From: Aldrovandia affinis | Taxonomy: Eukaryota; Chordata; Actinopteri; Notacanthiformes; Halosauridae | Assembly (NCBI GenBank): GCA_029706075.1 | Contig: JAINUG010000194.1 | Coordinates: 620,001-684,000, forward strand | Length of the DNA stretch: 64,000 bases | Direction of reading: 5' to 3' | Shown here: piece after piece, positions 10,211-61,110 of the stretch | Numbering within the stretch: the first letter of the stretch is position 1 | Layout: each line of letters starts with the position of its first letter | Made by a program: the position numbers and the translations under genes | Notes under the pieces: generated by a model | Told to the model about the DNA's origin: nothing | Seen by the model: the letters and a program-made list of their open reading frames with translations, nothing else | The model's database searches: none

Positions 10211-10387
10211 TGTAACCGAGTTGGTTCTGCCCGCAGCGAGTTTCGAACCGAGGGATCTCGACGCGACAAGAGAGCGATTAAGCTCGCTGAGCTAAAGACT
10301 CAAGTCTCCAACTCTGGGAACTAATCGCACCCTTATACACGTCATTTTCTGTAGCGGACGCTCACGTACCAGAGCACACCCGCTACA
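10211..10387 (-). repeat. 3' LTR of the miniature element (minus orientation)
   Basis: 177 bp, TG...CA. On the minus strand it opens with a hairpin-capable stretch (TGTAGCGG at 10387-10380 pairing with CCGCTACA at 10357-10350). A TATA-like GTATAAGG at 10338-10331 and the tRNA-like boxes follow. Confidence 0.85.
10239..10294 (-). promoter_or_regulatory. tRNA-like Pol III A/B boxes in the 3' LTR
   Basis: On the minus strand an A-box-like TAGCTCAGCGAG (10294-10283; consensus TRGCNNARYNGG, one mismatch) is followed 33 bases later by a B-box-like GGTTCGAAACT (10249-10239; core GGTTCGAA intact). Order and spacing match a tRNA gene. The stretch does not form a clean cloverleaf by eye, so it is a tRNA-derived or tRNA-like promoter rather than a functional tRNA. 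Confidence 0.65.
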
Positions 10388-10468: not shown

Positions 10469-10645
10469 TGTAACCGAGTTGGTTCTGCCCGCAGCGAGTT
10501 TCGAACCGAGGGATCTCGACGCGACAAGAGAGCGATTAAGCTCGCTGAGCTAAAGACTCAAGTCTCCAACTCTGGGAACTAATCGCACCCTTATACACGT
10601 CATTTTCTGTAGCGGACGCTCACGTACCAGAGCACACCCGCTACA
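10469..10645 (-). repeat. 5' LTR of the miniature element (minus orientation)
   Basis: Identical by eye to the copy 258 bp away. As the 5' LTR of the minus-oriented element it would drive transcription. It carries a TATA-like GTATAAGG at 10596-10589, followed by the tRNA-like A and B boxes. Confidence 0.85.
10497..10552 (-). promoter_or_regulatory. tRNA-like Pol III A/B boxes in the 5' LTR
   Basis: Same arrangement as in the other LTR: A box at 10552-10541, B box at 10507-10497. In the 5' LTR these boxes lie downstream of the TATA-like motif, so they would be inside any Pol II transcript. Confidence 0.65.
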
Positions 10646-34666: not shown

Positions 34667-34799
34667 TGTTACACGGACTGGACCCAAACGCAGGACACAG
34701 ACACAAGGGATGAGATTCGGTGAGGGTATTTATTCAATACAAAGACTGGTGCGGGGGAACAAGGGAAAGGGCAGACGAAGGCACGGAAGCGGGCAGGCC

Positions 34800-35390
34800 G
34801 GGAAGCTGGCTGGCAGGCAAGCAAGCAGGGAAGCTGGCTTGGAGGCAGGGCAGGGAAGCAGGAAGCTTGCTTGTAGGCAGGAAGCAGGGAAGCTGGCTTG
34901 TAGGCAGGGAAGCAGGGAAGCTGGCTTGTAGGCAGGGAAGCAGGAAGCTGGCTTGTAAGCAGGGAAGCAGGGAAGCTGGCTTGTAGGCAGGGAAGCTGGC
35001 TTGTAGGCAGGGAAGCAGGGAAGCTGGCTTGTAGGCAGGGAAGCAGGGGATCTGGCTTGTAGGCAGGGAAGCAGGGGAGCTGGCTTGTAGGCAGGGAAGC
35101 AGGGAAGCTGGCTTGTAGGCCGGGAAGCAGGGAAGCTGGCTTGTAGGCAGGGAAGCAGGGGAGCTGGCTTGTAGGCAGGGAAGCAAGGGAGCTGGCTTGT
35201 AGGCATGGAAGCTGGGGAGCTGGCTTGTCCGTGAGCAGGGAAGCTGGCTTGTAGGTAGGCACGCTGGGAAGCTGGCTAGTAGGTAGGGAAGCTGGCTTGT
35301 AGGTAGGCACGCTGGGAAGCTGGCTTGTAGGTAGGGAAGCTGGGAAGCTGGCTTGTAGGCAGGGAAGCTTGGAAGCTGGCAGGCAAGGGA
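34800..35390. repeat. 28-bp minisatellite
   Basis: Around twenty units related to GGGAAGCAGGGAAGCTGGCT plus TGTAGGCA are arranged head to tail, with shortened variants (lacking the GGGAAGCA step) and sequence variants near 35200-35350. The period is not a multiple of three and no unit contains a minus-strand stop in any frame. Long overlapping minus-strand frames (up to 342 codons, PASLPTSQLPCFPAYK-like) therefore arise automatically and are not evidence of a gene. Confidence 0.92.
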
Positions 35391-35421
35391 GGGGGCTGGC
35401 TGGTCCGTGGGCACGCAGGAT

Positions 35422-35478
35422 GACAGGCAAGACAGGCAAGACAGGCAAGACAGGCAAGACAGGCAAGACAGGCAAGAC
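35422..35478. repeat. 9-bp tandem repeat (GACAGGCAA)6
   Basis: Six near-perfect GACAGGCAA units within the same solo-LTR-like element, next to the 28-bp array. Confidence 0.95.
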
Positions 35479-43972: not shown

Positions 43973-44115
43973 TGTGTGGCTCAGTTGGGTTGGTAGAGCA
44001 CAGCGTTGACAACGCTTAGGTTGTGGGTTCAATACCCACTGGGACCACATATACTGAAAAATGTATACATTCACTACTGTAAGCCACTTTGGATAAAAGC
44101 GTCTGCTAAATGGCA
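43973..44115 (+). mobile_element. tRNA-derived SINE, short, V-SINE-like tail
   Basis: A well-preserved tRNA-like head runs from TGTGGCTCAGTTGGGTTGG (A box) to GTGGGTTCAATACCCACTGG (B box and T arm, about 44025-44042). An AT-rich linker follows, then the fish tail GTAAGCCACTTTGGATAAAA and GCGTCTGCTAAATG. The tail is shared with L2-clade LINEs, which presumably supply reverse transcriptase. Confidence 0.85.
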
Positions 44116-45496
44116 TATATTATTTGAATTACTTTAAATCTTTGGCATACAGACATTATGTAGGTATATTAAAGAAATCATTCAAGTGAATGGATATGAT
44201 TCATACTTTTATGGAGAAAAAGAATATTTGCATTTGCAGACCATACGTTGCCTGGATTCCCCCAAAAAATAACATGAAGAATAATTTTCCTACAGTTTCC
44301 TTCAGTATTGTAGTTTGTTTTACTGCGCTCAGACAGATGTTTTAACACTGTCAATTGTTTGTCCTGTGGCCTAATTCAGGCAAACACTTAGACTTATTTA
44401 TTTCTTTATGTAAAATATCCCAAGAGCTGACAAATATGACTTATGTATTGATTTACATTTTCTATTTATTTGTGTTCTTTGAGGAAGGGGTGGGGACCAC
44501 TAGAGCAGAGAGTGATTATTAAAGCGCTGGGCCGCGTCTGAAAGATGGCGCACCAGTGTTTTTGTTGCTGTCTGGATTTTCCCCTTTGCTTGCTCAAAGT
44601 CAGAAAGGCTTTCTCCTGGATTTCCCAGACTGTTCCGTTTGCTGGCGATAATTGAAACCAGTCAGTCTGCGGCATGTGTGGAAACAAGCTGGGCAATGTT
44701 TATTTTTTCCTTTAGGCAAGTTACGCACACACAAACACTCCCATACACACACACACACACATATACAGGCATACTGTAAATACATGTACTCCTGAGTACT
44801 CAATAACATCTGTTTCATCAGGGGCATATCATGATTATTAACATTTGAACTTTAATTGGTTTTTATTGTATTTAATATTTAACTGGTTGTTGTTTATTTC
44901 TATCTTTTTTGTATCTATTTGTTTATTTGTCTAATTGTAGGTTTGATGATTTTTTGGATATTTACCTGCATAAGTCATATTGAATGCACCAAAAAAACTT
45001 GCCGCTGGATTTTATCAAAACCACAAAGCCATTTTAAGGAAAATTGCTGTTAAACAATTTTTAAAAAGAAATAAAAAACTTTCCTGGATTATTCCTGAAC
45101 TCAATTACAACCAAGTAACTTCTGTCCCTTAAAACGGCTTTGCAGTTTTGATAGAATCTAAGGATTAAGTGTATAATGAATATATAATATGAGTATATAA
45201 TATATAATATTCTTTTTTGTGTTTTCCAATGCTGACAATATGTTGATGCATACAATGGACACACCACCTATGAAAAACGAAGTGATTTTGGCTGTCCTGA
45301 TGAAGCCCAGACCAGCATAGCACTATCACAAGGCCATCAATGCTTTTGCTTTCTTGATGTTACAATAAAGGTTTTCCATTCTGTAGTTTGCTCTACTACA
45401 ATTTGCTCTACTTTGCTCTACTACAATATCTTCAATGTATCTTCAATGCAATACTGCATTCACTCCAAAGATTACTCTGTATGTTCTTATATGCTT
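44116..45496. other. Gene-free sequence
   Basis: No supported gene. Contains an (AC)n tract at about 44727-44763 and an AT-rich TATAATAT cluster at 45178-45210. Confidence 0.4.
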
Positions 45497-48465: not shown

Positions 48466-48680
48466 GGAGGCAATGTTAGCATAATGGTTAAGGGACTAGG
48501 CTCGTAACGCAAAGGTTGCAGGTTCGATCCCAGGTGGGGCACTGCCGTTGTACCCTTGGTACTTACCCTGGATTGCTTTAGTAAATATCCAGCTGTATAA
48601 ATGGATTGTATGTAAAGAAATGTGAAACTGTGTAAGTCGCTCTGGAAAAGAGTGTCTGCTAAATGCCTGTAATGTAATGC
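48466..48680 (+). mobile_element. tRNA-derived SINE, UnaSINE1/HE1-like
   Basis: The tRNA head has an A box in TTAGCATAATGGTTAAGG and a B box GGTTCGATCCC (about 48521-48531). The body includes CACTGCCGTTGTACCCTTGG and TAAATATCCAGCTGTATAAA. The end is GTAAGTCGCTCTGGAAAAGA, then CTGCTAAATGCC and a short (TGTAA) tail. This order matches a full-length fish SINE relying on an L2-type LINE. It is largely intact with scattered substitutions. Confidence 0.88.
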
Positions 48681-51116: not shown

Positions 51117-51220
51117 CACTGATCTCTTGTGCGAACTATGATTGTTCTTACCATGTATTAATGCACATCTGGTAAGTCGCTCTGGATAAGAGCATCTGCT
51201 AAATGCTTAAAATGTCAAAT
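51117..51220 (+). mobile_element. L2-type LINE or SINE 3' end
   Basis: TAATGCACATCTGGTAAGTC then GCTCTGGATAAGAGCATCTG and CTAAATG is the fish L2/SINE 3' terminus. Upstream ATTGTTCTTACCATGTATTA resembles an L2 3' UTR more than a tRNA head, so it is probably a 5'-truncated L2 copy. Confidence 0.7.
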
Positions 51221-54900: not shown

Positions 54901-56528
54901 TAAGAAAATAACCCCATGGAGCACCTTCCAAATCCCACCAATTTTTTTCATTAAAGGCCAGTGAAAAGTGTTGGATTTTTCTTTATTGAATTCAGCCTGA
55001 TGAAACTGTACCTGCACCATACTGCTCTGGAAGAGAATGAGAGAAAGGCACAAAGCAGACCACTGATGAAATTCTCTTTAATGTGTCACTGATGAAATCT
55101 GACATTAATGTCAACAACTACGTGTGGTCTATGCGTTTTTTAAAACATTAACAATGTCAGATTTTGGTGCACCATTTTCCCAGCACTTTTTGATGCTCTT
55201 CACTTGGTAAAAATTCTGAAGTTTGTCAAAAAAAAAAAAAGATCCTTTTTGTGGAAGGGAGGATTTATTTTATTTATTTTTTGATTGAAAAGATCTCATA
55301 GACGAACCCGTTCTTCCGCGCTGCCATCCGATTCTCAGAGCAGCAGAGGATAAGTGCTGGTCTGAGTGCTCTTAGTTAATCTGTTTCAGGGTTTGTTTTT
55401 CCAATAAATGTGAATCAGATTAAGAGTGATATATATGACAGTGATACTTCTTTATAAACCCAGGCTGTAATGAGCAGTATGGAAATCTCGTTTTCCACAG
55501 CTATGGCAGAGATACAGATCAGTACTGCTGTAGGGTTCAATGCCCCCCACACACCCCCAATAGCCAGGCAGAATCTCAAACAAAATCTTCAATTGGGAGA
55601 ATCAGTGAAAATAGCAGGCCTTTTGAAATATCTACCTGAGTTTTTAACTCTATAATGTAATTAGCTTTCATGTTCATTCACTGTGATCCTGTTTGCAGGG
55701 TGTGATTACAATCCTTTACGTTTAGTTTTGTCCATCATTTGTAATCTTATCAGTCAGGGGGAAACTGAGGAGTAAGGACTAACACCCAGATATCAGGGCT
55801 TTCCTGTGGGAAAGGCTGTCCTGCTACTGGAGTGGTGTCCCTCAGGTAATGAATCCTCCCAACTGTTTAATTACAGATCTCCACCTGCAGGGCTTCCCTC
55901 TCTGGGTGTGACAGCGCTGTGGTGAGGCGCTTGACTGGCTGCAATGATTAACCCCTACCCTGTCCACTCCTGCCTTGATCTTAGTACTGTATACCACTCC
56001 TATTCACGTGTATGCTGCGCATAGAAATATTATTGATTCCCTGTGATCAGCGGATTAATTCATTTCAAATTTCAATGGAAGCAAGCCACCAATAGTGGCT
56101 ATAAACCTACTTTTTTCTCTTTATTTGAAGGTTCAGTTCCTGACAGTGAATTTGGTTAACTGAGGGGGCTCTGACTCTACATTTAGCATAGGAGCCTATA
56201 TGGCCTCACACCAGAGCGAGTCACCTGGCAATGCTGGACAGTCATTGGTGTCAACAAATGTCTGTTGTGGTGTTGTGTGCCTGTGTGTGCGTATATATCA
56301 TTGTGTCTACCAGGTGGATCCTATGACCAGAACAAACTCACTGCTGGTAAAACAGCAGGTTTCAAGAACACAGATGTGGGAATTTACCATTCAAAACTGT
56401 TGGTATTGACCATTGTAGGTAACTTCAATTTGTAGTACACAACATTTCTGATATTAAGGGGGAAAAGAAAACGCTACATTTTCATGAAGAAAATCACTTC
56501 ATGCTTTTTGGCCATCACATATACATAT
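51992..56528. other. Gene-free, AT-rich sequence
   Basis: No supported gene. Contains an A12-13 run near 55228-55241, a TTTATT-rich stretch at 55265-55285 and a G-rich run near 54668-54680. Open frames are below 85 codons and featureless. Confidence 0.45.
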
Positions 56529-57109
56529 TGTGGTGTCCCCAGGGGTTGGGCGACACGCACGGACCTTGCAGAGGGCGTAGGCAAGTTTAACAACAAGGAG
56601 GAGGCAGTATTTGAAAACAAAATGATAATTTATTATACTAACTATGACGAACGTTTACACAAAACAAAGGGCGGGGTATTCGGGGGAATACAAACAAAGT
56701 CCACAAATCCTTTCTCGTTGTCAAAGTCCGTTCCGTTGTCCAAAATCCAGTTCGTAGTCCGCAATCCAGTCCGTAGTCCAAAGCCAAAACAATCCAATCC
56801 CAAAGACACACAAAACAAACACTCCAACAAACACTCTCTCCAAATCCTGGCTGGTCAAACGACTTCACAGGTATTCTCTCTTTAAACAAACACAGTAACT
56901 CCTTCCAACTCACGTTCCTACTCCTCTCGATAGGTTCTGGGAGCGAGACCTTTAAATAGGCCTTGCAATGGCCTTCAGCTGGTCGTTAGCTCCCATTGCC
57001 TGACTTCGTTCAGGTGTTTCTGTGGTCTGCTGGGAAATGTAGTGAAAATGGCTGCCATGTGTTGGAGGCCAGGCAGCCATTTTCTGGTGCAACCCTTTGG
57101 GCTGCCACA
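56529..57109 (-). repeat. 3' LTR (minus orientation)
   Basis: 581 bp, TG...CA. On the minus strand a TATA-like CTATTTAAAGG lies at 56959-56949 and AATAAA at 56634-56629, giving a plausible U3-R-U5 order. It encodes the last 52 or so residues of the 872-codon ORF before the stop at 56952. Confidence 0.92.
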
Positions 57110-59570
57110 CACCCTCCTCCTCAGCTCTGACCTCGGGGAGGGCTGAGCGGCCTATGTCCAGCGGCCACCAGGAGGGTCCCCCTCTCCAGGTCCACTCAGG
57201 CAGTTTTCCACCCGGGTCAAACGTCCAGATCCCATCTCCATTCGCCTGAAAAAATGTCTGCAAGCCGTTAGGAAAGGACGAAAGGCGCTCACCTCGTTTG
57301 CCACCACCTGGCCATAGGTGGGTACTGGCTCTGGGGTCCAAGGATGGAACGGTTACCGCTCTTGCGTTAGTCCTCAACAGCCCTCCAAGGCTCCTCCAGT
57401 GAACCCTGTGCAGCATTTCATTTCTTGGTCCATTCTTTGGCTTTTTCCTTGTTCCTTTTGCTTTCAGGGGATCAAGTGTGGTAATTGGGGAAAATACACT
57501 CTTCAACAGCCAGTTAACTTTCTCCTTTGATTTCTTTTCCACATTTTCCTTCAAGTGAGAGCTTTGAATCTCCACTTTTCTCAATTTCAGTGCTGGCGAC
57601 GGACTCACCACATCAGGAGATGGTTGGGCCTTCAACCAGGCCTCCTCAGCCATAGTCAAGAGATCTTCCTCAACACTATGGTTCCACCATAACTCCTCTA
57701 GGCTCCCTTGAAGGTCCAGCAGGCTGAGTGGGACTGAGGACCATTGTCCCCACTCCAATGTCTGGTCATCATCTCTTGCCAGCTCACCTGGCTGTGCGTT
57801 CTCCACCTGCATGCTAGAGTCTTTCACAACAGGGACACGTTTTACACACTTCAGTTCCGCACTCACCCCTTCCAATCGGTCTTGTAGATCCACTCTGGTG
57901 TTCTTGAGGTCCTTGTTTTCAGTCTCCAGCTTTTCCACACTGGCCAAAAGGTCTTCCACAGCCCGAGAGAGCTCAGCCTTTTCTGTGGACAATGCGGCCA
58001 TCTCTTGCTCCAACTGCCGGTTCCTGGAGCACTGCTCTTCTTTCTCCTTCACAAGCTGCTCCTTCAGAACCTGCAGGTTCTCGTTTTTCGACGAGAGGTC
58101 TTTGTGACCTCTCTTCAGGGTGGACAGCTCGGAGGCAGAGGCTGAGAGCTGCATTTGAAGGGCCTCTCTCTGACCTTTGAGCTCCTCGACTTCTTTGGAG
58201 GTGTTCAATGATACTAGCTTCAGATCCGCTAAATCTGCCCTTAACTGTTCAGCCACCTGCTTGGAGGAGGCTAGCTCAGTAGTGAGAGACTGGCCTTGCT
58301 CTTTGTAAGGCTGCAGCTCCGCCGCCAGCTGCTCCAGCTCCTTGCTCTTGTCGCGAGAGCCGCTGAGCTCCTGCTCAGTCTTCTCCAGCTTGTCACGGAG
58401 CTCCTTGAGCTGTTGGCCGTGCTTCTCGGATTCCCCCCTCAAGGCCTTCTCCTGGACCGCCTGTAGCTCCTGGTTCTGGGCCTTTTCCTGCTCCACGCTC
58501 TTCTCCAGCTCGGCCAGCTGCTCCCGCAGGGCGTTGGCCTCGACCTGGTGCGTATCCCTGCTCTCCTGCTCCACTCGGCACCGGAGTTGCTCCACCTCGG
58601 ACGCATGGTTATCCGCTGCTTTCCTTAGCTCTGCCTCCTTCTGGGCGAGCCTGGTCTGTGCATCCCCCAAGGCCCTGGAATACTCATCTGTGGCCTGGTC
58701 CTGGGACTCCTGCATGTCCAGACACTGTCGCTGCTCATTCTCAAGCATCTGGGTTAGGTTACTCACCCGCTCTTCGAGCGCCAGGTTGTGGGCCTCGACC
58801 TGCCTCACTTCATCGCCCAGGGATGCTTTGTCCTTCTCCAGCTCCCCAGCCATGATTCCCAGCACTCTCAGCGAGTCAGTGTGCTCCTGCAGCAATCTCC
58901 CCACGGCCACCAGATGGCGCTCCTCCGAGGTCCCCAACTCAGCTTTCGTCTGGTACAGCTCAGTCTGGACACCTTTCAGTTGCTGGACCTCCCGGAGGGT
59001 GACTCGCCATTGGTCCTCCACCATGGCCGCCCGTCTCTGGTTCTTCACCAGGTCTTCCCTCTGGTCCCGACAGCATTGCTCCAATTTGTGGACCTCTTCC
59101 TGTTTGCCCTTGATTATATATTTTGCCTCTCCTAGCTCTGACTCTAAAACAGCACACTTGTCTGCGACACTTTTATGCTGCTTTTGCGGCCTACCTGGGA
59201 TCTTTTGACTTTTTTTCCTAGGGGGCACCACAGAGCAGGGGTGGCCATTTTTCTCTCCGACTTGTTTTGGTTCTGGTCTCTCCTTTGGGTCTTTCCAGCC
59301 CACTTCTTCCCTCATGGAACACTCACTGGGTTGGTGGCCATACTCCATACAGCATATGCACCACGGGGCACCACTTTGTGCCAATTGGGCCTGTTCCTTG
59401 TTCCAGGCGTCCATGGCTGGGCCTCCTGTCCAGTCACCTTCCATGAGCGTGCTTTTTCCTTTAAAAAATTCAAAAATTAAATCCTGCTGCACTACCTCCT
59501 CTTGCCTGTAAGTGATGCCCTCTGCCCGCATCCTCCACCATATGTGGTGTCCCCAGGGGTTGGGCGACAC
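56952..59570 (-). CDS. 872-aa CCHC zinc-knuckle plus long coiled-coil protein of the LTR element
   Basis: This is the only long coding-like frame in the window. The frame opens at a Met at 59570, inside U5 of the LTR. A second Met at 59531 (MRAEGIT), within the primer site, or the Met at residue 43 are plausible alternative starts. Residues 71-84, CICCMEYGHQPSEC, form a C-X2-C-X4-H-X4-C zinc knuckle as in retroelement Gag nucleocapsids. A basic stretch with PPRKKSQK follows, around residue 116. Residues about 137-577 are rich in Leu, Glu, Lys and Gln in heptad-like spacing, a long coiled coil similar in style to golgin, NuMA or EEA1 rods, though I cannot assign a source. The C-terminal 290 residues are acidic, then basic, then Trp/Gly/Pro-rich, and the last 52 or so are encoded by the 3' LTR. 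There is no capsid fold that I can recognise and no enzyme. It likely binds RNA and self-assembles, but that is inference. Confidence 0.78.
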   Translation of the reverse strand: MSPNPWGHHIWWRMRAEGITYRQEEVVQQDLIFEFFKGKSTLMEGDWTGGPAMDAWNKEQAQLAQSGAPWCICCMEYGHQPSECSMREEVGWKDPKERPEPKQVGEKNGHPCSVVPPRKKSQKIPGRPQKQHKSVADKCAVLESELGEAKYIIKGKQEEVHKLEQCCRDQREDLVKNQRRAAMVEDQWRVTLREVQQLKGVQTELYQTKAELGTSEERHLVAVGRLLQEHTDSLRVLGIMAGELEKDKASLGDEVRQVEAHNLALEERVSNLTQMLENEQRQCLDMQESQDQATDEYSRALGDAQTRLAQKEAELRKAADNHASEVEQLRCRVEQESRDTHQVEANALREQLAELEKSVEQEKAQNQELQAVQEKALRGESEKHGQQLKELRDKLEKTEQELSGSRDKSKELEQLAAELQPYKEQGQSLTTELASSKQVAEQLRADLADLKLVSLNTSKEVEELKGQREALQMQLSASASELSTLKRGHKDLSSKNENLQVLKEQLVKEKEEQCSRNRQLEQEMAALSTEKAELSRAVEDLLASVEKLETENKDLKNTRVDLQDRLEGVSAELKCVKRVPVVKDSSMQVENAQPGELARDDDQTLEWGQWSSVPLSLLDLQGSLEELWWNHSVEEDLLTMAEEAWLKAQPSPDVVSPSPALKLRKVEIQSSHLKENVEKKSKEKVNWLLKSVFSPITTLDPLKAKGTRKKPKNGPRNEMLHRVHWRSLGGLLRTNARAVTVPSLDPRASTHLWPGGGKRGERLSSFPNGLQTFFQANGDGIWTFDPGGKLPEWTWRGGPSWWPLDIGRSALPEVRAEEEGVWQPKGLHQKMAAWPPTHGSHFHYISQQTTETPERSQAMGANDQLKAIARPI
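57110..57121 (-). other. Polypurine tract
   Basis: On the minus strand AGGAGGAGGGTG directly precedes the TG of the 3' LTR, as expected for the plus-strand primer. Confidence 0.75.
59523..59540 (-). other. Primer binding site, possibly tRNA-Ala type
   Basis: On the minus strand TGGTGGAGGATGCGGGCA starts two bases inside the 5' LTR. TGGTGGAG(G) matches the complement of the tRNA-Ala 3' end (CCTCCACCA); the rest aligns only with small gaps, so the primer identity is tentative. Confidence 0.55.
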
Positions 59571-60123
59571 GCACGGACCTTGCAGAGGGCGTAGGCAAGT
59601 TTAACAACAAGGAGGAGGCAGTATTTGAAAACAAAATGATAATTTATTATACTAACTATGACGAACGTTTACACAAAACAAAGGGCGGGGTATTCGGGGG
59701 AATACAAACAAAGTCCACAAATCCTTTCTCGTTGTCAAAGTCCGTTCCGTTGTCCAAAATCCAGTTCGTAGTCCGCAATCCAGTCCGTAGTCCAAAGCCA
59801 AAACAATCCAATCCCAAAGACACACAAAACAAACACTCCAACAAACACTCTCTCCAAATCCTGGCTGGTCAAACGACTTCACAGGTATTCTCTCTTTAAA
59901 CAAACACAGTAACTCCTTCCAACTCACGTTCCTACTCCTCTCGATAGGTTCTGGGAGCGAGACCTTTAAATAGGCCTTGCAATGGCCTTCAGCTGGTCGT
60001 TAGCTCCCATTGCCTGACTTCGTTCAGGTGTTTCTGTGGTCTGCTGGGAAATGTAGTGAAAATGGCTGCCATGTGTTGGAGGCCAGGCAGCCATTTTCTG
60101 GTGCAACCCTTTGGGCTGCCACA
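59543..60123 (-). repeat. 5' LTR (minus orientation)
   Basis: Apparently identical to the 3' LTR. It should supply the promoter: the TATA-like CTATTTAAAGG lies at about 59973-59963. A 91-codon open frame inside it (59652-59927, minus) would lie near the start of the transcript, but it is present in both LTRs and has no recognisable domain. Confidence 0.92.
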
Positions 60124-61110
60124 ATATATAGTGCAAACTTTCTTTATTCACCAAAACTTCTCTCCACCACATTGGCAAAATGACTAAGCTATAAAATCCA
60201 TACGGTATACTGAAAACTGACGTAACATAGCAGGTTTATAGCGGGCTAGGGCAATTGTCAATATGCCCAATATGGCATCGATTCAACATCATGGTGGATG
60301 TTTAACAGTTGTTTGTATTCCAGGCATTTTTTAACCTCCATATCAATCACAGCTCGTACCAAAGTACATGTATGTACAGGTATTGGCCAAAAATGTAGAA
60401 ACACCAATATGATATGGCCATATGACAATATGTAAACTCCCCCGGACAATTATTTATTTTTTAAAATAAATTCTGTTTCTGATTTTACCCCATTTTTCTC
60501 CCGAATGTGGAAGCCAATTAAACTCTTTAATTATTTTCTGTTCTTCATGAAATATCAGCAAGTTGAGCTATCTTCATCACTGAAGCTTCTGCTAAATGTG
60601 TCCCAACAATCACCCCTCTTTCGAAGTCACATATTCGAACCATGCTAGCAATAATTATAGGCAACCAGTCCTGCCTAGAAATTTTGTACATGACACTGAA
60701 CATGCTGGGATGTTATTTGCTTAATTAACTCAGGAACAATGCCTGTGTAGAAATACCAGTTTTCAATATAATTTGTTTTTTGTACAATATTAAATGACGT
60801 ATCCTCTAAGATTGTTGATTGTATGTAAAATGGCATGTAACTTAATTTTTTCTTTGGAAAACTCTTATCGAGTGAAATTTTTAATTTGCATTCCAATAGT
60901 GTTATAACATATACTTATGCACACAAGATGGAATTCAATGTCTGATAATCCTGTCCTTGTTTGGCTTTGTTAGGTTTGTCCAATGTTTGTTCAGCAGTCC
61001 TTATCAGACAGCGGGGTGGAATCTGCCCTGTGTGTCTGCTGCTGGCCTGGGACTGGATATGGGGTAGCAAGTTAAGACCAAATGAAGTCAGAAACTCTTT
61101 ATGGCTGCAA
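60124..61110. other. Gene-free sequence
   Basis: Host sequence beyond the LTR element. No supported gene; a Tc1-type terminal fragment at 60375 is listed separately. Confidence 0.4.
60375..60408. mobile_element. Orphan Tc1-type terminal repeat fragment
   Basis: TACAGGTATTGGCCAAAAAT then GTAGAAACACC resembles the termini of the Tc1-like element at 30904-31923 (TACAGGAGTAGACAAAATAA then TGGAAACACC). No transposase or partner end follows. Confidence 0.45.

What the first reader, a model, noticed from the sequence alone, without database searches (positions are those of the whole stretch)
56529..60123. Recently mobile LTR element whose only product is a zinc-knuckle/coiled-coil protein
Apparently identical 581-bp LTRs, ATAT target duplication, primer site and polypurine tract show a genuine, young LTR insertion. 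The 2.4-kb interior carries one intact minus-strand ORF: a CCHC knuckle followed by about 440 residues of coiled coil, with no pol genes. Non-autonomous elements that keep a Gag-like ORF are known from plants; one whose Gag appears rebuilt around a long rod-like coiled coil in a fish is, to my knowledge, not a standard class. The coiled coil may be a captured host sequence or a divergent Gag that assembles by coiled-coil contacts.
Basis: partly seen in the sequence, partly recalled or inferred. Interest (0 to 1): 0.87.

Follow-up and report, generated by a model that had tools for sequence, protein, structure and literature searches.

The report
LTR element swapping host coiled coils
A young jumping element without copying enzymes of its own makes a single rod-like protein, and sister copies of it in the same genome carry rod segments taken in frame from host genes, so the element family appears to exchange parts of its only protein with those of its host.

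Summary
In detail: 56529-60123 is a minus-strand LTR element with identical 581-bp LTRs, an ATAT duplication, a tRNA-Ala-type primer site (recalled), a polypurine tract and one long ORF (CCHC knuckle, long coil, C-terminal region); no pol was recognised in it. It belongs to a large family: 16 two-LTR elements were read, 14 with exact 4-bp duplications, LTR pairs 0-9 substitutions apart. The ORF is constrained between copies (2 in-frame stops seen, 45.6 expected), although 14 of 16 elements lack a frame of 800 aa.

What is new: the middle of the coil is exchangeable. Sister copies with a similar frame around it carry a different middle coil. In two types it is host sequence: GRIPAP1 exons without introns (seven exons between copies, up to five read in one copy, 91.6-100% DNA identity) and 477 bp of one TRIP11 exon (95.6%). 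Both host genes lie in the same genome. A short, widespread coil is probably native. The donor of the window element's own middle coil was searched for and not found.

Best explanation: a non-autonomous LTR family, mobilised in trans, that acquires and shuffles host coil-coding sequence by template switching. The helper was not identified; a capsid fold could not be tested.

The parts
56525..56528 (.). target-site duplication, ATAT (left copy)
   Evidence: 14 of 16 elements read show an exact 4-bp duplication
60124..60127 (.). target-site duplication, ATAT (right copy)
59543..60123 (-). 5' LTR (581 bp, TGTGG...CCACA)
   Evidence: identical to the other LTR over 581 of 581 bases
56529..57109 (-). 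3' LTR (581 bp)
   Evidence: 40 of 40 scored genome places match at 89-100% (4970 first-look candidates)
59524..59540 (-). primer binding site TGGTGGAGGATGCGGGC, 2 bases inside the 5' LTR (tRNA-Ala type, recalled)
   Evidence: same site with G/A and C/T variants in the 16 elements. A variant of the LTR-end/PBS junction that excludes the window's own form occurs 28 times in the genome, 0 for the reversed control
57110..57122 (-). polypurine tract GAGGAGGAGGGTG next to the 3' LTR
   Evidence: the same in the 16 elements read
56952..59570 (-). the only long ORF on the element strand (872 codons from GTG; likely start ATG 59444 or 59414; conserved part ends near 57135)
59319..59360 (-). zinc knuckle CICCMEYGHQPSEC
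   Evidence: the 92 residues around it match in 150 of 150 scored places (997 candidates), 76-100%; pattern in 33 of 42 copies read
58566..59168 (-). N-terminal part of the coil, shared by the coil types
   Evidence: module map; its last 28 residues (58566-58649) are absent from the TRIP11 type
57888..58565 (-). exchangeable middle coil, window type (sub-segments 58365-58565 and 57888-58364); in sister copies GRIPAP1, TRIP11 or a short coil stand here
57135..57887 (-). conserved C-terminal region (tryptophan-rich, basic stretch)
   Evidence: alignment of 10 copies to 57156, mean column identity 70%; dN/dS 0.22-0.71 in 15 of 16 comparisons, undefined in one

Best explanation
A non-autonomous LTR retroelement family. 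SHOWN: its copies share LTRs, primer site, polypurine tract and one ORF (knuckle or other N-terminus, coil, C-terminal region), with no pol recognised in the window copy. They inserted independently and recently, and the middle of the coil differs between lineages. In two lineages the middle is a segment of a host coiled-coil gene: GRIPAP1 exons without their introns, and part of the large TRIP11 exon. INFERRED: the protein binds or packages its RNA and self-assembles through the coil, while reverse transcriptase and integrase come from another LTR element with the same primer. During reverse transcription in mixed particles the polymerase jumps between element RNA and packaged host mRNA, or another element RNA, at short similarities that coil-coding sequence (rich in GAG, CAG, CTG) offers in plenty. 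Jumps that keep the frame leave a working rod, so such copies spread and are later trimmed and recombined into other LTR backgrounds.
For: Element family. ORF constraint: 2 in-frame stops against 45.6 expected over 1153 substitutions in 11 copies. GRIPAP1: host gene on C213 with introns. Element L017 carries exons a, b, c, f and the start of g, 94.9-100% identical in DNA and without introns; L071-L074 carry b(part)-c-d-e and L071-L073 also f; L063 carries d-e-f and the start of g, L067 the same with the end of d missing. TRIP11: L019 matches 477 bp of the host exon on C1224 at 95.6% without gaps. Direction host to element: both host genes align with human protein pieces (typed from recall) beyond the captured part, the TRIP11 exon has no LTR within the 6 kb read, and for GRIPAP1 only the element versions lack introns. 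Exchange: of 42 distinct copies mapped, 12 have the window type, 15 GRIPAP1, 10 TRIP11, 4 the short type, 1 was too short to tell; GRIPAP1 and TRIP11 types sit in LTR backgrounds from about 71 to 95% identity to the window LTR (sampling steered by my queries). Mechanism precedent: PMC5408686, passages only.
Against: Donor of the window element's own middle coil not found. The TRIP11 piece lies within one exon, so it does not tell RNA from DNA capture. No helper with pol identified; but the 11 primer-site neighbourhoods read (L060-L062, 1.5 kb each; L063-L070, 0.5 kb each) are too short to exclude pol further on, and the two with a longer primer match (L076, L077) share only about 20 bases with the family. 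14 of 16 elements have no frame of 800 aa or more, so the protein may not be needed in cis. Among the 10 TRIP11-type copies substitutions look unconstrained (pN/pS 1.35, few changes), and in the coil dN/dS against the window scatters from 0.35 to 2.3. The knuckle is missing from 9 of 42 copies and from one subfamily, against an essential RNA-binding role. In L017 the join of exons c and f is not a clean splice (three bases fewer), probably a later deletion. Template switching is inferred from junctions, not observed.
Confidence: 0.68

Rival explanations
1. The ORF is an ordinary but divergent Gag with a native rod; the host-like coils in some copies are accidents of retroposition, hitch-hiking in copies moved in trans, with no role in the element's life.
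For: The short, probably native coil is widespread (150 of 150 scored of 1068 candidates match, 69-100%). TRIP11-type copies show no sign of constraint on the captured part. Most of the 16 elements are frame-broken.
Against: Pieces of two different host genes stand in frame in the same stretch of the coil. Open frames of 700-863 aa that include captured coils are listed. Over 77 codons of GRIPAP1, 15 copies show 0 stops and pN/pS 0.56.
Confidence: 0.2
2. The element is a passive parasite: coding capacity is irrelevant, and the ORF persists because copies are young and descend from a few intact masters.
For: LTR pairs are nearly identical (32 substitutions in 9230 bp over 16 elements). Frames are broken in 14 of 16 at the 800-aa mark. 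L063 and L067 share a junction that removes the knuckle, which suggests that this form multiplied without it.
Against: Substitutions between copies avoid stops (2 against 45.6), and 25 gaps are multiples of three. Of the 74 other gaps 46 lie in homopolymers, and LTR pairs of single elements show 24 indels to 32 substitutions, which looks like assembly error in part.
Confidence: 0.08
3. The window's own middle coil is an old native or horizontally acquired coil, not a host capture; only sister lineages captured host genes. (This can be true together with the best explanation of the family.)
For: All 107 candidates for the second sub-segment were scored and none of the 47 matches stood out as a host gene (most lie at known element places, they were not checked one by one).
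Against: A donor exon that is short, diverged or absent from the assembly would be missed; the segment stands where the known captures stand.
Confidence: 0.5

Closest known systems
LTR-mediated retroposition (chimeric retrocopies; Tan et al. 2016 as cited in PMC5408686, passages read)
   Same: spliced host mRNA joined into an LTR element, explained by template switching at short similarities
   Different: here the host pieces sit in frame inside the element's only long ORF, in one stretch of it, in lineages that then spread to many copies
Bs1 of maize (retrocopies of three cellular genes; as cited in PMC5408686, not read itself)
   Same: LTR element with captured pieces of several cellular genes
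   Different: coil-for-coil exchange in a scaffold shared by a large family, with alternative captured coils in different lineages
Gag-only non-autonomous LTR elements of plants (recalled)
   Same: LTRs, primer site and polypurine tract kept, one Gag-like ORF, no pol
   Different: helper unknown; protein dominated by a rod; capsid not demonstrated; host coils incorporated
Transducing retroviruses that carry host cDNA (recalled)
   Same: intronless host coding sequence within a retroelement
   Different: no env or pol recognised; the captured part replaces a segment of the element's own rod rather than adding a foreign gene

Membership tests
LTR retroelement (general) | paired direct LTRs ending TG...CA | tested here: met
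   581 of 581 identical; 16 paired elements read
LTR retroelement (general) | short target duplication of constant length | tested here: met
   exact 4 bp in 14 of 16 (10 different sequences); L012 has one mismatch, L022 unclear because its 3' LTR end is cut
LTR retroelement (general) | primer site and polypurine tract next to the LTRs | tested here: met
   tRNA-Ala assignment recalled
LTR retroelement (general) | dispersed independent insertions | tested here: met
   different duplications; flanks share only short repeat-like matches, the longest 146 bp at 86%
Autonomous Ty3/Gypsy, Copia, BEL or retrovirus | pol with reverse transcriptase and integrase | tested here: not met
   no Pfam family at its cut-off in the coil ORF or in six other frames of the element
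Retroelement Gag | CCHC knuckle | tested here: inconclusive
   pattern present in the window copy and in 33 of 42 copies; no Pfam hit; absent in one subfamily
Retroelement Gag | capsid fold | not testable with these tools
   structure prediction switched off; no sequence match of the C-terminal profile to solved structures at E up to 1
Gag-only non-autonomous partner of a known autonomous element | LTR, primer site and polypurine tract shared with a pol-bearing element | tested here: inconclusive
   only primer-site sharing seen with two other elements; no pol read
Host gene capture by LTR element | host coding sequence, without introns, inside the element | tested here: met
   GRIPAP1 exons without introns and a single-exon TRIP11 piece in sister copies; for the window's own coil no donor found
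Host gene capture by LTR element | short similarity at the junctions | tested here: inconclusive
   a few shared bases at the junctions read; no test against chance

The most novel reading that the evidence does not exclude
The family is a coil-shuffling retroelement: reverse transcription routinely exchanges the rod of its single protein with rods of host membrane-traffic proteins (GRIPAP1 and TRIP11 are endosome and Golgi tethers, recalled), and the captured rods are kept because they route or assemble the particles in new ways.
Probability: 0.25. Interest if true: 0.92.

Novelty: new variant of a known kind. Interest (0 to 1): 0.78.

Why it matters
Gene capture by retroelements is usually met as a single event. 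Here a family carries in-frame rods from at least two host genes in the same stretch of its only long ORF and has multiplied with them, and the donor genes are still in the same genome at about 92-100% DNA identity. That makes the order of events, the junction rules and selection on captured protein parts directly measurable, and it points to a route by which retroelements can rebuild a Gag-like protein from host material.

Tried and rejected
Segmental duplication instead of transposition: rejected, different target duplications and no long shared flanks. Chance ORF: rejected. Coil similarity to host genes as mere composition: rejected for GRIPAP1 and TRIP11 because the match is at DNA level. 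Solved-structure and Pfam matches to coil pieces are weak, below the curated cut-offs where there are any, and treated as composition: keratin (E 0.026), ODAD1 (0.093); for the window's middle coil alone 19 Pfam families at E up to 1, best DUF7491 at 2.3e-4, 21.8 bits against a cut-off of 30. Donor search for the window coil: 225-residue query, 153 matches from 150 scored of 541 candidates; 158-residue query, 47 matches from 107 of 107 scored; no host gene stood out. GRIPAP1 and TRIP11 were first judged by recall and then tested. Autonomous partner: variant primer-site pattern (28 places; neighbourhoods of 11 read; 0.5-1.5 kb only) and longer primer match (2 places). The two latter have frames that I read as SCAN/Gmr1-like Gag from recall; Pfam and PDB sequence searches do not confirm this; pieces 2.3 kb downstream were only looked at by eye for long frames and showed nothing I would call pol. 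The extra N-terminal domain seen in L060 has no Pfam match and no convincing PDB sequence match (best E 0.5). One viral-contig scan gave one hit at 25% identity, taken as chance. Eight paper searches showed nothing in their listings that describes this family; only PMC5408686 was opened (passages), and PMC5131818 is not held.
Full report
WHAT IS THERE. The element occupies 56529-60123 on the minus strand: 581-bp LTRs without a difference, a 2433-bp interior and an ATAT duplication. The interior starts with TA and TGGTGGAGGATGCGGGC, which I recall as the complement of a tRNA-Ala 3' end, and ends with a purine tract. It holds one long frame on the element strand (872 codons from a GTG; likely start at 59444 or 59414), with a knuckle C-x2-C-x4-H-x4-C at 59319-59360, a coil to about residue 560 and a conserved C-terminal region to about residue 812. 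After that, copies differ in frame. No Pfam family reaches its cut-off in the ORF, its pieces or six other frames of the element; the middle coil alone gives weak coil-type matches (best DUF7491, E 2.3e-4, 21.8 bits against a cut-off of 30).

A YOUNG FAMILY. The LTR has 4970 first-look candidates in the 1.22-Gb genome; 40 were scored and all 40 match at 89-100%. I read 16 two-LTR elements including the window's. Target duplications are exact in 14 of 16, with 10 different sequences among the 14; LTR pairs differ by 0 to 9 substitutions, in all 32 in 9230 bp. Four further LTRs read are solo LTRs with their own duplications. Flanks share only short repeat-like matches, the longest 146 bp at 86%. 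The knuckle region alone has 997 candidates, 150 of 150 scored matching, so the family probably has several hundred copies or more; exact numbers are not available because the tool scores only the best candidates.

IS THE ORF REAL? Eleven copies with the window's coil type (10 of the 15 other two-LTR elements plus L025; L009, L017, L018, L019 and L023 were left out because their coil differs) carry 1153 substitutions relative to the window ORF, with 2 in-frame stops (both in L011) where 45.6 would be expected from the same base changes placed at random. The copies are related, so the 1153 are not independent events. Gaps: 25 are multiples of three, 74 are not, and 46 of the 74 lie in homopolymers. 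LTR pairs of single elements show 24 indels to 32 substitutions, 11 of the 24 in homopolymers, a ratio that suggests assembly errors in part. Against this, only 2 of 16 elements have a frame of 800 aa or more and 5 of 16 one of 600 or more. dN/dS against the window is 0.22-0.71 in the C-terminal part (15 of 16 comparisons; one undefined), 0 to 0.86 in the N-terminal 92 residues (14 of 16; two undefined) and 0.35 to 2.3 in the coil (15 of 16; one undefined), the high values resting on few changes.

THE COIL IS EXCHANGEABLE. Copies L017, L018 and L019 keep the knuckle region, the first part of the coil and the C-terminus but have different middles (in L017 and L018 the knuckle lies in another frame piece than the coil). 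A module map of 45 fetched stretches (42 distinct places; L029, L049 and L056 repeat L017, L019 and L009) gives 12 window type, 15 GRIPAP1 type, 10 TRIP11 type, 4 short type and 1 cut too short. The sample follows my queries, so these are not frequencies. The short type is widespread: 1068 candidates, 150 of 150 scored match at 69-100%; its spread of identity suggests the older state. The knuckle pattern is found in some frame in 33 of the 42.

HOST ORIGIN, GRIPAP1. A piece of human GRIPAP1 typed from recall found three exons on contig C213 (17 of 17 candidates scored, 3 matches). Reading 20 kb upstream showed the gene with introns. L017's middle equals exons near C213:685034-685099, 686111-686248, 686674-686772 and 689911-689991 plus the first codons of the exon at 691250, at 94.9-100% DNA identity and without the introns; two exons (near 687772 and 689098) are missing, and the join across that gap is three bases short of a clean splice. 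Other copies fill the gap: L071, L072, L073 and L074 carry part of the second exon, the third, both missing exons and, in the first three, the next one (91.6-97.8%); L063 and L067 join the primer site directly to the fourth exon and run on to the same 3' junction as L017, L067 lacking the end of the fourth exon. No single copy read holds all seven. The simplest reading is one spliced GRIPAP1 cDNA of at least seven exons that entered the element and was trimmed later; the 5' joins differ between copies, so more than one event is possible. The query for this coil gave 156 matches from 150 scored of 1005 candidates, many in long open frames. Over 77 codons of exons two and three, 15 copies differ from the host by dS about 0.02-0.11 and dN 0.006-0.028, with no stops.

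HOST ORIGIN, TRIP11. The L019 middle has 45 candidates, all scored, 40 matches. One, at C1224:8250019, lies in a 1050-codon frame with no LTR in the 6 kb read. That frame aligns with a recalled human TRIP11 piece at 44.6% over 213 residues, reaching 434 bases beyond the captured part. Element and host share 477 bp at 95.6% without gaps. The piece lies inside one exon, so it does not show whether RNA or DNA was copied. Ten copies differ from the host by dS 0.08-0.11 with no stops; among themselves the few changes look unconstrained (pN/pS 1.35). GRIPAP1 (as in L017) and TRIP11 pieces end at the same native segment; their 5' joins differ by a native coil segment of about 28 residues.

THE WINDOW'S OWN COIL. 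Its first sub-segment is shared with other types (L071 and L072 have its beginning followed by GRIPAP1). The second (57888-58364): 107 of 107 candidates scored, 47 matches, none standing out as a host gene (not checked one by one). So the host origin of this coil is a reasonable guess by analogy and is not shown.

WIDER FAMILY. Some members (L060) have a further domain of about 70 residues before the knuckle: 998 candidates, 150 of 150 scored match at 56-100%, frames up to 876 codons. The window lineage lacks it. A subfamily (L073, L074; leaders of L066, L068) starts at the coil and has no knuckle, with frames of 721 and 732 aa listed at the L073 and L074 places.

HELPER. None found. Of 28 places with a variant LTR-end/primer junction, 11 were read over 0.5-1.5 kb: all are members or trimmed forms of this family, and pol further downstream would not have been seen. 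A longer match to the primer occurs twice; those elements share about 20 bases with this family and begin with another Gag-like frame, whose class I could not confirm. They show at least that other elements with the same primer type exist in this genome.

HOW IT PROBABLY WORKS. Shown: structure, youth, ORF constraint, exchange of coils, two host donors, and loss of introns for GRIPAP1. Inferred: packaging through the protein, helper enzymes in trans, template switching at short similarities, and tolerance of a rod to exchange. Unknown: the helper, any capsid, whether captured coils are selected. Template switching with host mRNA in LTR particles is a described mechanism (PMC5408686, passages).

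NOVELTY. The listings of eight paper searches name no such family; the library lacks most subscription papers, and repeat databases were not available, so an existing repeat name cannot be excluded. The parts of the process are known; in-frame replacement of the rod of a Gag-like protein by rods of more than one host gene, in a large and young family, is to my knowledge not described.

Noticed in passing
L044 (host GRIPAP1 3' region, C213 near 714368): A short stretch of the host gene (EQL-KNMHLQK) recurs about ten times, mostly 92 bases apart, in the region after the exon: a minisatellite grown from coding sequence.
   Followed up: no
window 34753-35456: Array of repeats stepped by 20 and 8 bases, with overlapping minus-strand frames of 158-342 codons.
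   Followed up: no
window 10211-10387 and 10469-10645: Two identical 177-base direct repeats, 258 bases from start to start, unexplained.
   Followed up: no
window 44066-44119, 48619-48672, 51158-51212: Three UnaL2 LINE 3' tails, one behind a tRNA-like match at 43977-44039: SINE-like repeats of a kind known from fish and reptiles (recalled).
   Followed up: no
L022:4310-4517: A second, 76.5% similar LTR fragment a few hundred bases from the element: a related LTR subfamily.
   Followed up: no
G000 contigs C302, C1447, C2466, C3, C1480, C2211: Pairs of matches 2.7-3.1 kb apart on the same strand suggest LTR-interior-LTR-interior-LTR tandem arrays.
   Followed up: no
L076, L077: Elements with a 21-base tRNA-Ala-type primer match and another Gag-like frame; possible helper class.
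   Followed up: partly
L063, L067: Copies in which the primer site is joined straight to GRIPAP1 coding sequence, with an ATG of the primer-site region in frame.
   Followed up: partly
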